Shown here: in pieces, positions 5,931 to 34,643 of the stretch
How positions within the stretch are numbered: the stretch's first letter is position 1
Layout: the number at the start of each line of letters is the position of its first letter
Source of the DNA: Salicibibacter cibi
GTDB lineage: Bacteria; Bacillota; Bacilli; Bacillales; Marinococcaceae
Assembly (NCBI RefSeq): GCF_016495865.1
Contig: NZ_CP054706.1
Location: 992,001 to 1,056,000 of the forward strand
Reading direction: 5' to 3'
DNA length: 64,000 bases
The notes under the pieces: model-generated
Told to the model about the DNA's origin: nothing
Seen by the model: only the letters and a program-made list of their open reading frames with translations
Database searches by the model: none
Made by a program: the position numbers and the translations under genes

Positions 5931-7526
5931 TCAATGCTGTAATCGTTCATTTATTTCTTTTTTTTGACGGAGCAACTGTTGGAATTCTGCTTCTAACGCG
6001 TCCGTTGGCGTGATACTTAGACGGCTTAATACGTCGGAAATTCTGGTTTCTACCTTAAGCAATTCGTCTTGCAGTGGGTCGTGATTTTTCTGCGGCGTCG
6101 TTTGCATATAATCATTATAGGAGCCGTCAAACGTATGGATTGCCGTGTTGTTGATAGCGAAAATTCTTGTTGCTACGTTTTGCAAGAAATGTCGGTCATG
6201 AGATACAAAAAGGACGGTTCCCGAGTAATCGACGAGTAAAGATTCGAGCGCTTCCATGGCGTCGATGTCCAAATAATTGGTAGGTTCGTCAAGGACCAAT
6301 GTGTTCGCATTACTCACAAATAACTTGGCGAAAGCAACCTTTACGCGTTCTCCTCCGCTTAAGACATGAACAGGTTTAAAGACATCGTCCTGTAAAAAGC
6401 TTAGGCGGGCCAATACCGTGCGGATCAGCGATTCGTCATGCGGCGAGGTAGAGCTTACGTTCTCCAGTATGGAAATGTCTGTTTCCAAGACATCCAATGT
6501 TTGGCTGAAATAGCCAAAAGAAACAGATGGCGAGACTTGAATGGAAGGATGCCCATCCATCATCATCCGAAGGAAAGTGGTTTTCCCACTGCCGTTTGGA
6601 CCAATCACGGCAATTTTATCGGCCCCAATCACGGAGAAATTAAAAGCCTTCCATAAAAGGTGGTCTCCTACGGTTCCGGTCACTTGTTCGCCGCGTATGA
6701 TCGTGCGATTACGAAGAGATTCTTCGTGGGTTGTTTGCATCTTGATGGGAGGCAGCTCTTTTATTTTTTCCACTTTATCCAGTTGGTCAATCCGTGATTG
6801 AATGGAGGTTACGCCTTGGTTTAATTTCTTTTGCTTTTTGGCAAAATAGGGTTTTGCGCCGGTGATTTTCGCCTCCGATTTCGAGACGTTTTTAGGTTTT
6901 TTAGTGGCACGTTGGGCTTTCTGTTCTTTTTGTTGCATCGCTTCTTCCAATTGTTTTTTCTTCTGCGCGTATTTTTCGTATTCTTTTTCGTGATGCTGAC
7001 GCGCTTCTTTTTTTTGCTGGGCGTAATCCGAATAATTTCCGGTAAATTCACGAATCTGTCCATCTTCGATTTCCCATATTTTTGTGCAAAGCGCATCCAT
7101 GAAAGCACGGTCGTGGGAGACCAATACCAACGCTTCCTGGCGCCGTTGCAATTGTTTCTCCAGTTTTTCCATGTGCGCTGTATCAAGGTGTGTCGTGGGT
7201 TCATCAGCTAATAGCAGTTCAGGCGCTTGAGCGAGTGTTTGATTAATGACGGCCTGAGAAATTTCACCGCCGCTTTTTTGTTCCATCCGCGGCTTAATCT
7301 GTGGAAGCAGGGCGACGGAGGCATTTTTCGTTATCGTTCCGGAAGCAGGTGGAATTTCTCCGTTAATCACCTGCAACAAAGACGTTTTTCCCGAACCGTT
7401 GCGACCGATTAAGCCGATCCGGTCTCCTTGGTGGATGGTTAAATCATTGATATGGAATAACGTTCGATCTTTTACGTTAAAATGGACGTTTTGTAATTGA
7501 ACCAATGCCAAGTCGATCATCTCCAT
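5931..7526 (-). CDS. ABC-F ribosome-protection ATPase (VmlR/Vga/Msr type)
   Basis: A soluble, duplicated ABC protein with no membrane segments. Walker A motifs GRNGSGKTS (near residue 42) and GPNGSGKTT (near 311) pair with Walker B motifs LLADEPTTHLD and LVLDEPTNYLD. Between the domains lies a long charged linker rich in Lys, Glu and Gln, as in antibiotic-resistance ABC-F proteins that enter the ribosomal E site to displace drugs. The first domain is short between Walker A and its SGGE signature, as in VmlR/Vga/Msr. The C-terminal helix resembles the end of B. subtilis VmlR. Length is 531 residues. A long leader with an attenuator precedes it, which supports drug-inducible expression. Which drugs are covered (lincosamides, pleuromutilins, streptogramins A or macrolides) cannot be read from sequence. 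Confidence 0.88.
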   Translation of the reverse strand: MEMIDLALVQLQNVHFNVKDRTLFHINDLTIHQGDRIGLIGRNGSGKTSLLQVINGEIPPASGTITKNASVALLPQIKPRMEQKSGGEISQAVINQTLAQAPELLLADEPTTHLDTAHMEKLEKQLQRRQEALVLVSHDRAFMDALCTKIWEIEDGQIREFTGNYSDYAQQKKEARQHHEKEYEKYAQKKKQLEEAMQQKEQKAQRATKKPKNVSKSEAKITGAKPYFAKKQKKLNQGVTSIQSRIDQLDKVEKIKELPPIKMQTTHEESLRNRTIIRGEQVTGTVGDHLLWKAFNFSVIGADKIAVIGPNGSGKTTFLRMMMDGHPSIQVSPSVSFGYFSQTLDVLETDISILENVSSTSPHDESLIRTVLARLSFLQDDVFKPVHVLSGGERVKVAFAKLFVSNANTLVLDEPTNYLDIDAMEALESLLVDYSGTVLFVSHDRHFLQNVATRIFAINNTAIHTFDGSYNDYMQTTPQKNHDPLQDELLKVETRISDVLSRLSITPTDALEAEFQQLLRQKKEINERLQH

Positions 7527-7550: not shown

Positions 7551-7640
7551 GAAAACTTGGCTTTTCGCCAAGCTTTTATGGCGAAAGCCTTCGCCCAACT
7601 TATGTAGGTAAGAAAGTTGATTTATACTTTCTTACCTACC
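7551..7640 (-). repeat. Hairpin-rich interspersed repeat, copy A
   Basis: One of four related copies (see 9421, 34551 and 23085). A 14-bp perfect stem, GTAGGTAAGAAAGT, is joined to a second hairpin around CTTGGCttttcGCCAAG. Here it lies between the attenuator and the ABC-F start codon, so it is transcribed as part of that leader. Confidence 0.8.
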
Positions 7641-7647
7641 AAAAATA

Positions 7648-7684
7648 GCCCCCTATTCATAGACAGACGTTCAGAATAGGAGGC
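7648..7684 (-). terminator. Attenuator terminator in the ABC-F leader
   Basis: On the minus strand GCCTCCTATTC pairs with GAATAGGGGGC (11 pairs, one G-T) around a 15-nt loop and is followed by TATTTTT. Its left arm shares CCTATTC with the antiterminator arm 7669-7680, so the two structures exclude each other. Confidence 0.8.
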
Positions 7685-7742
7685 CAAATAGCTATATAAA
7701 CCGCAGGCTACATAATAATAGCAGACCAACCCTATTCTGAAC
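7669..7742 (-). promoter_or_regulatory. Antiterminator stem of the ABC-F leader
   Basis: GTTCAGAATAGG (7731-7742) and CCTATTCTGAAC (7669-7680) form a perfect 12-bp inverted repeat in the minus-strand transcript. Formation of this stem uses the left arm of the terminator. A third strand next to the short upstream ORF, at 7807-7822 (CCTATT plus GAAC), can pair with AATAGG and GTTC of the first arm. That completes a four-segment attenuation switch. Confidence 0.75.
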
Positions 7743-7823
7743 GATGACGAAAAACATGCAAAATAAACCTTCCCATTGAAGGTCGATCATTACACTATGT
7801 TCGTCTGTTCCGCAAAAATAGGA

Positions 7824-7835
7824 TTAGTACTTCAT
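7824..7835 (-). CDS. Three-codon leader peptide (MKY) of the ABC-F gene
   Basis: ATG AAG TAC TAA lies about 30 nt downstream of the predicted transcription start, with AGGA close upstream and GAGGGTG 12 nt upstream. The stop codon is followed directly by the first pairing segment of the attenuator. A ribosome stalled here by a drug would cover that segment and favour the antiterminator. Very short leader ORFs are known from other ABC-F resistance genes. The function is inferred from position. Confidence 0.6.
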   Translation of the reverse strand: MKY

Positions 7836-7874
7836 CGTCCTACAGTTCACCCTCTTTTTTAAATGGTTACTCTT

Positions 7875-7904
7875 ATCATATATCTTATGGATAAGATAAG
7901 TCAA
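7875..7904 (-). promoter_or_regulatory. Sigma-A promoter of the ABC-F gene
   Basis: Minus-strand TTGACT, an 18-bp spacer, then TATGAT. It begins just past the end of the neighbouring transporter gene and directs a leader of about 340 nt. Confidence 0.75.
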
Positions 7905-7927: not shown

Positions 7928-9337
7928 TCAAAGCATCCAAACAGCCACAATCGAAGCGACGACAATCCCGATCAATACGGGAATAAAATTTTGTCTTACG
8001 AGTTCAGCGGGTTTCACACCGGCGATTCCGGCATCTGCCGCAGCACCAAATGCCCAGGCAGCGAGTGTTCCGCCACCAACGAAGATCGTAATCACTTGCC
8101 CCAAGGAAGCGAGAATGGCAACATCAACCCCTGTTGCTTGCCCGAGTGCTGCCGATAGGCTTCCGACGAGCGGCAATCCCGAAAATCCGGATCCATCTAA
8201 ACCGGCAAGTATGGCGATCAGCCCAATGCCTACAACAAGCATGGCAGGACTGCCGTCAATATATTGCGCGAGTGATTCGCCGATGTCGAAGAGAAACCCC
8301 GGTGCTCCTTCTCCCAAGACGGCTTCCGCATGATCCGGATGACCCAGAAAGAAGAAACCGGCTAATGGAATAATTGGTGCGAAGATTTTCAGTGCAAAGA
8401 AAAAGCCTTCTTTCATATACTCTACAATGTTGCTCATTCCTTGAATTCCGCTTTTGGCAAACGTCGCAATCATCATGAGAAAGACAGCGGTTCCGCCAAG
8501 AAGGGCGGTTGCTTCTTGGCCTTGAATTGCTTCTTCCGGATGAAAGACGGCACGATACAGCATGAGACCGATAACCGTCAGCAACATGAGTGGGACGACC
8601 AGGGCCATCGTTTTCGAGGTTTTTGGACGCCCTCGATACGTATCCGTCGTCTTGAGATCGAGTGCTGTCTCATCCGCTTTCCATTTCCCTTTTTTCATCC
8701 CTCTTATAATCGTGAAAAACGCGATAGGAATCGCGACCAAACCGACCACGAAAGAAAATAATGCTGTATAGGGTAAAATTTCACCTATCCCCAACCCGGC
8801 GGCAGTAGCTGTTAAATTTCCTGCGCCTTGAACGACGAGATCGCCTGATAACGCCATCCCGTGTCCGAATAAGTTAACGGCGACTGCTGCCCCGATGGCG
8901 GGTAACCCGGATTTGACGGCAATGGGGATCAAAACTGTGCCGACGAGGGCAATTGCAGGCGTCGGCCAAAAGAATAACGAGGCGATGTACATCGTGATTC
9001 CAAGAACAAAAAAGGAAGTCGTTGGATTAAGCATCAACTTTTTCAGAGGGGAAAACATCAATTCAGCGGCACCGACCGCTCGCAACGCTTGCAACATCGC
9101 GACCATTAACGTAATAATCAACATGATGTCAAACAGCTCAATGCCTGCGTTCATAAAAGCTAGAAAGACAGCTTGCGCAGATGAAATCAAACGATCGATA
9201 ACGCCCAAGTCTGTATAGTAAAAGAAGGCAAGTAAAAACGTCCCGAGCACGACCGGAAAAACAACATTTTTTCTCCAAAGAATAAAAATAAACACCGTGA
9301 CAATGACAATAAGAAAAAATACGTGTGTGAAACCCAA
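7928..9337 (-). CDS. Multi-span carrier of the ion-transporter superfamily (GntP/CitMHS-like)
   Basis: A 469-residue integral membrane protein with about twelve hydrophobic segments and very few charges within them. Two half-repeats each have a Gly/Ala/Thr-rich loop, for example FFWPTPAIALVGT and FVGGGTLAAWAFGAAA, as expected for elevator-type organic anion or Na+-coupled carriers. I cannot assign a substrate. The start is TTG, selected because GAGGGGG lies 6-7 nt upstream. The upstream region holds a hairpin repeat, a strong terminator and a folded RNA segment, which suggests conditional transcription. The downstream neighbour is the ABC-F gene with its own promoter. Confidence 0.7.
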   Translation of the reverse strand: MGFTHVFFLIVIVTVFIFILWRKNVVFPVVLGTFLLAFFYYTDLGVIDRLISSAQAVFLAFMNAGIELFDIMLIITLMVAMLQALRAVGAAELMFSPLKKLMLNPTTSFFVLGITMYIASLFFWPTPAIALVGTVLIPIAVKSGLPAIGAAVAVNLFGHGMALSGDLVVQGAGNLTATAAGLGIGEILPYTALFSFVVGLVAIPIAFFTIIRGMKKGKWKADETALDLKTTDTYRGRPKTSKTMALVVPLMLLTVIGLMLYRAVFHPEEAIQGQEATALLGGTAVFLMMIATFAKSGIQGMSNIVEYMKEGFFFALKIFAPIIPLAGFFFLGHPDHAEAVLGEGAPGFLFDIGESLAQYIDGSPAMLVVGIGLIAILAGLDGSGFSGLPLVGSLSAALGQATGVDVAILASLGQVITIFVGGGTLAAWAFGAAADAGIAGVKPAELVRQNFIPVLIGIVVASIVAVWML

Positions 9338-9420: not shown

Positions 9421-9512
9421 TTAGAAAACTTGGCTTTTCGCCAAGCTTCTATGGCGAAAGCCTTAGTTGCACTTATGTAGGTAAGAAAGTTGATTTATAC
9501 TTTCTTACCTAC
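9421..9512 (-). repeat. Hairpin-rich interspersed repeat, copy B
   Basis: Full copy that begins TTAG and ends CTAA on the plus strand. It contains the GCTTTTCGCC hairpin and the GTAGGTAAGAAAGT stem. It lies in the leader of the minus-strand carrier gene, downstream of the terminator at 9520. Confidence 0.8.
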
Positions 9513-23084: not shown

Positions 23085-23146
23085 GGGTAGATAAGTGCAA
23101 CGAAGGCTTTCGCCATAAAAGCTTGGTGAAAATCCAATTTTTCTAA
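23085..23146 (-). repeat. Hairpin-rich interspersed repeat, copy D (partial)
   Basis: In reverse orientation, TTAGAAAA through TATGGCGAAAGCCTT and TGCACTTAT match copies B and C. The GTAGGTAAGAAAGT hairpin half is missing. Confidence 0.7.
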
Positions 23147-34550: not shown

Positions 34551-34643
34551 TTAGAAAACTTGGCTTTTCACCAAGCGTTTATGGCGAAAGCCTTAGTTGC
34601 ACTTATGTAGGCAAGAAAGTTGATTTATACTTTCTTACCTACT
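34551..34643 (-). repeat. Hairpin-rich interspersed repeat, copy C
   Basis: Full copy with TTAG/CTAA ends and the AAGAAAGT/ACTTTCTT stem, one base changed in the stem (GGCAAG). It lies upstream of the 32-residue ORF. Confidence 0.8.

What the first reader, a model, noticed from the sequence alone, without database searches (positions are those of the whole stretch)
7641..7904. Four-segment attenuator with a three-codon leader ORF before an ABC-F resistance gene
Seen: promoter TTGACT-18-TATGAT; ORF ATG AAG TAC TAA; then on the minus strand segment 1 CCTATT...GAAC (7807-7822), segment 2 GTTCAGAATAGG (7731-7742), segment 3 CCTATTCTGAAC (7669-7680) and segment 4 GAATAGGGGGC (7648-7658) followed by TATTTTT. 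1:2 allows 3:4 (terminator); 2:3 prevents it. Known: ABC-F genes such as vmlR and the Listeria vgaL-type gene are induced by attenuation with short leader ORFs. Inference: a drug-stalled ribosome on MKY covers segment 1 and turns the gene on.
Basis: partly seen in the sequence, partly recalled or inferred. Interest (0 to 1): 0.75.

Follow-up and report, generated by a model that had tools for sequence, protein, structure and literature searches.

The report
Shared drug-sensing switch for resistance genes
The stretch before this bacterium's antibiotic-resistance gene holds a three-codon reading frame and four matching RNA segments that are predicted to switch the gene on only when an antibiotic stalls a ribosome there, and the same element stands before several unrelated kinds of resistance gene in other Bacilli, so it likely serves as one common alarm.

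Summary
The free leader folds as 1:2 + 3:4; with a ribosome footprint masked on the AUG it folds as 2:3. The design is conserved: 108 of 111 loci (window included) carry the leader, 103 with three codons, while the peptide varies (MKY in 47 of 108). The mechanism is of a known kind. Rfam's "ncr1575 sRNA" (RF02452) proves to be the vmlR leader and matches the window end to end, below its cut-off; Listeria rli53 and plasmid vga(A) and vga(C) leaders look alike.

New in what I could search: a covariance model trained only on ABC-F leaders also finds the element before Vat acetyltransferases, Vgb lyases, a Cfr methylase and MFS pumps (33 of 34 such loci). It looks like one attenuator family serving a multi-gene resistance regulon, probably sensing a start-codon stall rather than a peptide. 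A further hairpin covers the gene's ribosome-binding site; in the window the folding model never opens it. Induction was not tested; all is computed.

The parts
7875..7904 (-). promoter-like site TTGACT-18-TATGAT
   Evidence: 10 of 12 consensus letters; 2 sites found, 1.7 expected; TTGACT and TATGAT also stand before the leader of L010
7847..7854 (-). GAGGGUGA, likely ribosome-binding site of the uORF, 11 bases before the AUG
   Evidence: AGGGUGA is invariant in the 40 rows of A2
7824..7835 (-). uORF ATG AAG TAC TAA (Met-Lys-Tyr)
   Evidence: a three-codon uORF at this place in 103 of 111 loci
7807..7828 (-). segment 1, begins in codon 3 and includes the stop codon
7725..7742 (-). segment 2, pairs with 1 (anti-antiterminator) or 3 (antiterminator)
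   Evidence: 2:3 covariation
7669..7680 (-). segment 3
7641..7658 (-). segment 4 and U tract: 3' arm of the terminator hairpin (7686-7646)
   Evidence: not listed by the consensus scan
7602..7640 (-). extra strong hairpin between terminator and gene, also in L009; a similar one in L017
7519..7547 (-). segment 5 (UAGUCUCCAU, 7547-7538) and the gene's Shine-Dalgarno (GGAG, 7524-7521) in a hairpin; segment 5 is also the best partner of segment 4 (GGGGGCUAU) in this stretch
   Evidence: P(5:6) 1.00 in the window; best seg4 partner ATAGTCTCC; both pairings in 81 of 102 loci against 78 of 2040 shuffles; 4:5 not predicted to form in the window
5931..7526 (-). Vga-family ABC-F ribosomal protection gene; the true start is more likely TTG at 7511
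   Evidence: in L010 a stop codon lies between the aligned ATG and TTG

Best explanation
The minus-strand leader at 7868-7641 is most likely a ribosome-mediated transcription attenuator: a drug-stalled ribosome on its three-codon ORF is predicted to cover segment 1, so that segment 2 would pair with 3, the 3:4 terminator would not form, and the Vga-type ABC-F gene would be read. Without drug, the ribosome would finish MKY quickly and leave, 1 would pair with 2, 3 with 4, and transcription would stop. Shown here by computation: the parts, their conservation, the covariation, the two folds and the flip under a masked footprint. Inferred: that a ribosome really stalls, that it does so at the AUG, and that lincosamides, pleuromutilins and group A streptogramins are the inducers. 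Because the peptide varies across relatives while the number of codons and the AUG-to-helix distance stay nearly fixed, the sensor is probably a start-codon stall, not a nascent peptide. A second, translational layer (Shine-Dalgarno hairpin, segments 5:6) is likely in the family but uncertain in the window.
For: Fold z -6.3. Free full leader: segment 2 with segment 1, segment 3 with segment 4; footprint masked at -15..+15 of the AUG: all 12 bases of segment 3 with segment 2, and so at all seven 3' ends tried at which segment 3 is complete. Nascent RNA ending before segment 4, 174 leaders: 1:2 in 149 free, 2:3 in 166 with the AUG masked, 65 with a control mask. 108 of 111 loci carry the leader; 103 have three codons, 5 two. 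2:3 helix: 97.7% of cells paired, 4 pairs with double changes, 0 of 500 shuffles as good; 1:2 + 3:4: 93.7%, covariation score 0 of 500. RNAalifold finds 1:2 and 3:4 unaided. Relatives with published experiments: vmlR (PMC9226507, section read), rli53/lmo0919 (PMC11550727 passages), vga(A), named as attenuated in PMC12421871 (passages), where toeprints show these drugs stall at the start codon of two Streptomyces uORFs.
Against: With the terminator complete, the AUG mask flips the equilibrium fold in only 48 of 174 leaders, so in most the switch rests on the order of synthesis. In the window, free RNA ending at 7659-7655 prefers 2:3 by little, without any ribosome; it is one of 19 of 174 leaders that do so at that stage. 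The Shine-Dalgarno hairpin stays closed in both states in the window. The consensus scan does not list the terminator. For vmlR the identity of the MIN peptide was reported as crucial (PMC10201436), which speaks against a peptide-blind sensor. 3 of 111 loci have no such leader, 4 of the 108 were accepted by eye, and 10 of 108 fail the four-segment test. The covariation test uses registers chosen by pairing.
Confidence: 0.88

Rival explanations
1. Peptide-specific stalling: the ribosome stalls because of the nascent Met-Lys-Tyr together with the drug, as on macrolide leader peptides, so that each leader's tripeptide tunes which drug induces.
For: MKY is the commonest peptide (47 of 108); the vmlR work found the MIN identity crucial for lincomycin induction (PMC10201436 passages).
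Against: 15 different tripeptides and two dipeptides stand in the same frame before the same gene family; codon 3 and the stop lie in or next to helix 1:2, so RNA pairing alone can hold them.
Confidence: 0.25
2. General translation-stress sensor: any slow-down of initiation or early elongation (starvation, assembly defects, many drugs) opens the gene; no drug-class selectivity.
For: vmlR is also induced by ribosome assembly defects (PMC9226507 abstract).
Against: The ABC-F, Vat and Cfr genes behind the element belong to families for peptidyl-transferase-centre drugs (the drug ranges are recalled), which suggests a narrower signal; the substrates of the MFS pumps are unknown, so this is weak.
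Confidence: 0.3
3. A trans-acting small RNA, as Rfam's label 'sRNA' for RF02452 suggests; the short terminated transcript acts elsewhere.
For: Rfam type Gene; sRNA.
Against: The 50 RF02452 places that I read (30 best and 20 weaker, of more than 150 listed) all stand before ABC-F or MFS genes in the same direction, judged by the N-terminal sequence.
Confidence: 0.03
4. Chance repeats around an ordinary terminator, no regulation.
For: Inverted repeats are common near terminators; shuffles pass my loose test in 10.3 of 100.
Against: z -6.3, leader present in 108 of 111 loci, covariation.
Confidence: 0.01

Closest known systems
B. subtilis vmlR leader (uORF MIN; Rfam RF02452 'ncr1575')
   Same: Three-codon uORF inside the anti-antiterminator, antiterminator, intrinsic terminator, Shine-Dalgarno hairpin (PMC9226507, section 18 read). 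RF02452 spans 7868-7641 end to end, and its best locus precedes VmlR (L121, 949.8 bits to 6ha8).
   Different: Peptide MIN, not MKY; gene of another ABC-F subfamily; the window scores 34.1 bits, below the family's cut-off of 60. The NusG-dependent pause hairpin was not looked for.
Listeria rli53 / lmo0919 (vgaL) leader (RF01481)
   Same: Vga-type gene; L019 of Listeria goaensis passes RF01481 (77.3, cut-off 70) and holds AUG AAA UUA UAA UCCUG; lincomycin-induced read-through is published (review passages seen; the Term-seq paper itself not seen).
   Different: The window itself does not match RF01481 at E 10; the Listeria leader is shorter; the R1 model finds it only weakly (E 0.0007 to 0.0015).
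Staphylococcal plasmid vga(A) and vga(C) leaders
   Same: L266 (S. epidermidis vga(A), uORF MIN) matches the model at 103.1 bits; pCPS49 vga(C) has ATGAAATACTAA after GGGTGA.
   Different: On plasmids; about 55-56% protein identity. The vga(C) leader spans the start of its circular record and was read in two pieces only.
C. difficile cplR leader
   Same: Three-codon uORF (MR[I/M]), transcription plus translation attenuation (PMC10201436 passages).
   Different: There the terminator stem itself hides the gene's Shine-Dalgarno; sequence likeness was not tested.
trp-type attenuators
   Same: 1:2, 2:3, 3:4 alternation controlled by ribosome position (recalled).
   Different: Here the drug-bound ribosome, not tRNA charge, is the presumed signal.

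Membership tests
Ribosome-mediated attenuators of ARE ABC-F genes | short uORF with ribosome-binding site at the 5' end of the leader | tested here: met
   7835-7824; three codons in 103 of 111 loci
Ribosome-mediated attenuators of ARE ABC-F genes | intrinsic terminator before the gene | tested here: met
   hairpin 7686-7646 with U tract; 3:4 pairs 93.5% of cells. Against: not listed by the consensus scan, whose loop limit is 8
Ribosome-mediated attenuators of ARE ABC-F genes | mutually exclusive antiterminator and anti-antiterminator, the latter overlapping the uORF | tested here: met
Ribosome-mediated attenuators of ARE ABC-F genes | read-through induced by a ribosome-targeting drug | not testable with these tools
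   needs reporter or Term-seq
Rfam RF02452 (ncr1575) | covariance-model score over the gathering cut-off of 60 | tested here: not met
   34.1 bits, E 0.0014, full length
Rfam RF01481 (rli53) | covariance-model score over the cut-off of 70 | tested here: not met
   no match listed at E 10
Vga family ABC-F proteins (NCBIfam NF000170) | score over the curated cut-off of 725 | tested here: met
   737.1 bits over residues 8-525

The most novel reading that the evidence does not exclude
One RNA device, a three-codon (sometimes two-codon) ORF wired into a 1:2 / 2:3 / 3:4 / 5:6 cascade, is shared across Bacilli by ABC-F proteins, Vat acetyltransferases, Vgb lyases, a Cfr methylase, MFS pumps and perhaps an oxidoreductase. 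It forms a multi-gene regulon without a transcription factor that senses any drug stalling ribosomes at the start codon, whatever the peptide.
Probability: 0.6. Interest if true: 0.72.

Novelty: new member of a known kind. Interest (0 to 1): 0.55.

Why it matters
The window's leader itself is one more likely drug-inducible ABC-F attenuator. What could change minds is the breadth: leaders before vga, vmlR, vat, vgb, cfr and MFS genes fall into one recognisable RNA family, so one drug signal may raise target protection, drug modification, rRNA methylation and efflux. It also makes a clear question testable: does the sensor read a peptide, or only a ribosome parked on a start codon? And it relabels a Rfam 'sRNA' (RF02452) as a resistance-gene leader.

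Tried and rejected
An outer half-helix around the AUG (bases before the AUG with bases after segment 2) is clear in vmlR-type leaders (17 of 30 at no more than 5 of 100 shuffles) but weak in the Vga set (27 of 105), so I do not claim it for the window. The reading of a second terminator after 7640 was dropped: the GCTTGGCGAAAAGCCAAG hairpin belongs to a repeat with 73 copies in the genome. A longer ORF inside the leader (ATG ATC GAC..., seen by eye) was not followed up. The 4:5 pairing, common among relatives, is not predicted to form in the window. Plasmid searches with the L217 (cfr) and L194 (vgb) leaders found no match at E 0.001. RF02452 does not match 9 of 14 loci given to it, among them the vat locus L192 and the cfr locus L217, at E 0.1; the one match at L019 is RF01481. 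L219 (a pattern hit in a distant genome, 'ML**') was judged a chance hit. One search was a first version of the segment test that stopped with an error after part of the rows; one search replaced it.

Full report
What was checked. The finding describes a leader on the minus strand at 7904-7641. Every element is in the sequence at the stated place: TTGACT-18-TATGAT (7904-7875), ATG AAG TAC TAA (7835-7824), segment 1 (7822-7807), segment 2 (7742-7731), segment 3 (7680-7669), segment 4 (7658-7648) and the U tract. The gene behind it, 7526-5931, is a Vga-family ABC-F ribosomal protection protein (NF000170, 737.1 bits against a cut-off of 725; VgaA 7nhl 618 bits and VgaL 7nhn 354 bits). The true start is more likely TTG at 7511 behind GGAGAUGAU, since in the sister genome G002 (L010) a stop codon lies between the aligned ATG and TTG.

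Folding. The leader folds far better than shuffles (z -6.3). Free, segment 2 pairs with the segment 1 side and segment 3 with segment 4. When a ribosome footprint (-15 to +15 of the AUG) is held open, all twelve bases of segment 3 pair with segment 2 and the terminator is gone; the same holds with codon 2 or 3 in the P site. Folding the growing RNA at ten 3' ends gives 1:2 at eight of them; at 7659 and 7655 2:3 is ahead by little (-60.8 against -59.6 with segment 3 held open). With the AUG masked it is 2:3 at all seven ends at which segment 3 is complete. Over 174 leaders of the whole set (window included), nascent RNA ending before segment 4 forms 1:2 in 149 and 2:3 in 19 when free (the window's is one of the 19), and 2:3 in 166 with the AUG masked, against 65 with a control mask 28-58 bases downstream. 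With the complete terminator present, equilibrium folding flips in only 48 of 174 (5 of 174 with the control mask): the model needs co-transcriptional order.

Conservation. The sets below include the window's own genome and overlap one another. Relatives of the protein occur in 3 of 4 genomes of the genus (E 1e-100), and at E 1e-120 in 9 of 29 of the family, 80 of 397 of the order and 34 of 398 of the class; one search adds four named Vga-type loci (Oceanobacillus, Piscibacillus, two Listeria). I took 111 loci with a usable upstream region, the window's own (L001) among them; L068 was left out because its gene is cut, L021 because it is not a Vga relative. Two of the 111 (L018 and L046) have identical upstream DNA. 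A motif seeded with 82 exact examples finds 104 of 111 with a score of 15 or more; L018, L046, L113 and L114 score low and were accepted by eye; L107, L119 and L120 have no such leader. So 108 of 111, a count that favours the three-codon form through its seed: 103 have three codons, 5 have two (MK or MI), and in those the helix starts at +8 to +10, as elsewhere (+7 or +8 in 86 of 174 leaders). MKY stands in 47 of 108; 14 other tripeptides (MWN, MKN, MKF, MKL, MIN, MYN, MIY and more) in the rest. Overlapping 1:2 and 2:3 helices: 94 of the 104 with a scorable terminator, shuffles 10.3 of 100 on average; with a terminator search that favours agreement, 98 of 108.

Covariation. On a plain MAFFT alignment of 50 of 86 eligible leaders (A1), RNAalifold finds 1:2 and 3:4 unaided. 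For 2:3, 97.7% of cells pair, four pairs show changes on both sides (8 cells), and no shuffle of 500 does as well. For 1:2 + 3:4, 93.7% of cells pair (2 of 500 shuffles as high) and the covariation score beats all 500, but the number of pair types does not stand out (54 of 500 as high). Across 158 leaders of all gene classes, own partners pair better than foreign ones for each helix (0 of 2000 permutations as good in the whole set and in Vga alone; 6 of 2000 for 1:2 outside Vga), with the caveat that registers were chosen by pairing.

Known relatives. Rfam release 15 gives no hit over the cut-offs in the window, but RF02452, 'Bacillus sRNA ncr1575', spans 7868-7641 end to end at 34.1 bits (cut-off 60). 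Its consensus contains AUGAUUAACUAA, which fits the vmlR uORF(MIN) of PMC9226507 (section 18 read). RF02452 occurs in 125 of 299 order genomes, in 64 over its cut-off (Bacillus subtilis is the one control genome of 14 that rings). The 30 best loci all stand before ABC-F genes, judged by the N-terminal sequence; L121 was searched and is VmlR. Twenty weaker ones that I picked and read the same way stand before ABC-F (18) or MFS (2) genes. So this 'sRNA' is the vmlR-type leader. The Listeria leader L019 passes RF01481 rli53. Leaders of plasmid vga(A) (L266), Vga genes of S. saprophyticus (L267) and Jeotgalibaca (L268), and, weakly, L. monocytogenes vga(G) (L269, E 0.0015) match the model R1, and vga(C) of pCPS49 has the same start.

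The wider family. The exact pattern GGGTGA-N7..13-ATG-N6-TAATCCTA is found at 80 places in 77 of 397 order genomes and at 39 places in 38 of 388 class genomes; the reversed control pattern was not found in them. Nine places are shared, leaving 110. Seventy stand before the Vga relatives above. The other 40 stand before: other or broken Vga-like ABC-F genes 6; MFS pumps 22 of one kind (TIGR00900-like but under its cut-off; 4 of the 22 scanned, the others judged by shared sequence) and 2 Tet-like (under the Tet cut-off); Vat acetyltransferases 4 (L192 344.7 and L213 338.1 bits over a cut-off of 300; L198 partial; L214 by eye); a vat-vgb pair 1 (L220, vat by eye); Vgb lyases 2 (L216, PF24684 454 bits; L194, NF000096 426.9, under its cut-off of 600); a Cfr methylase 1 (L217, NF000424 592.4 over 530; uORF MKY); a short-chain dehydrogenase 1 (L205); and one likely chance hit (L219). 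A covariance model of the first half of the leader, built from 40 ABC-F leaders alone, finds 33 of the 34 loci before non-ABC-F genes at E 8e-5 or better (the miss is L219), 20 of 30 vmlR-type loci under E 0.01 (6 of 30 not at all), and none of 8 control loci. The 34 loci had been picked by the pattern, which covers part of the model, so this is not a fully independent test; in 31 whole genomes searched with the model alone, 12 have a match at E 0.001, including three without a pattern hit (G023, G031, G037). The cfr leader, one vgb leader (L194) and one MFS leader (L202) fail my four-segment test; in the cfr leader the stretch after the hairpin is not T-rich.

A second layer. Shortly before the gene, 76 of 111 loci carry GYCUCC and 23 GUCCCC (the two can overlap). 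Such a segment 5 can pair with the gene's Shine-Dalgarno or with segment 4: both pairings in 81 of 102 loci, 78 of 2040 shuffles. vmlR has such a hairpin (SL-4, PMC9226507). In the window segment 5 (AUAGUCUCC) is the best partner of segment 4, but the Shine-Dalgarno hairpin is predicted closed with and without the ribosome; a strong extra hairpin and a copy of a dispersed repeat separate segments 4 and 5 there, so this layer is open for the window.

How it most likely works. Lincosamides, pleuromutilins and group A streptogramins can stall ribosomes at start codons; toeprints on two Streptomyces ABC-F uORFs show this (PMC12421871, passages seen). A ribosome parked on the AUG covers about 15 bases beyond it (established knowledge), which is where helix 1:2 begins. 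That a peptide so short is exchanged for many others speaks for a stall at initiation; the published need for MIN in vmlR (PMC10201436, passages) speaks against a wholly peptide-blind device.

Literature. Ten searches (listings only, unless a passage is cited) showed no paper that describes this leader before vat, vgb, cfr or these MFS genes. The library holds open-licence papers only; the vga(A) paper (PMC7577164) and a survey of premature terminators (PMC5314783) were not held, and the Term-seq paper was not seen, so prior description cannot be excluded.

Verdict. The window's element is a new member of a known kind; the shared family across unrelated resistance genes is the part that deserves follow-up.

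Noticed in passing
window 7556-7589, 9429-9462, 23105-23138, 34559-34592: Dispersed repeat GGCTTTCGCCATAAAAGCTTGGCGAAAAGCCAAG, 73 copies in the genome at up to 3 mismatches, reversed control 0; one copy sits between the attenuator and the ABC-F start. A related stretch stands at the same place in L009 and in Oceanobacillus L017.
   Followed up: partly
window 7928-9337 (-): 469-residue hydrophobic, permease-like protein upstream of the leader with no Pfam or NCBIfam match at E 0.001.
   Followed up: no
Rfam RF02452: The family typed 'Gene; sRNA' (ncr1575) is the vmlR-type leader; the 50 places that I read stand before ABC-F or MFS genes.
   Followed up: yes
L220: Leader followed by a Vat-type gene (by eye) and then a Vgb-type gene, a possible streptogramin A + B operon.
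   Followed up: partly
L205:1789-2592: A short-chain dehydrogenase gene stands behind a complete leader (uORF MIH); its role in drug resistance is unknown.
   Followed up: no
L264 (LR961926.1, Enterococcus faecalis plasmid): A leader 85% identical to that of the partial vat gene L198, with no Vat-like ORF behind it; a long ORF that looks like a transposase by eye follows instead.
   Followed up: no
L243 (unnamed order genome): Leader (uORF MIN) followed by what looks like an IS200-type transposase ORF (by eye).
   Followed up: no
L018 (= L046), L045, L113, L114: Two-codon uORFs (MK or MI, then UAA) in place of three, with the helix start at +8 to +10 of the AUG; L114 fails the four-segment test.
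   Followed up: partly
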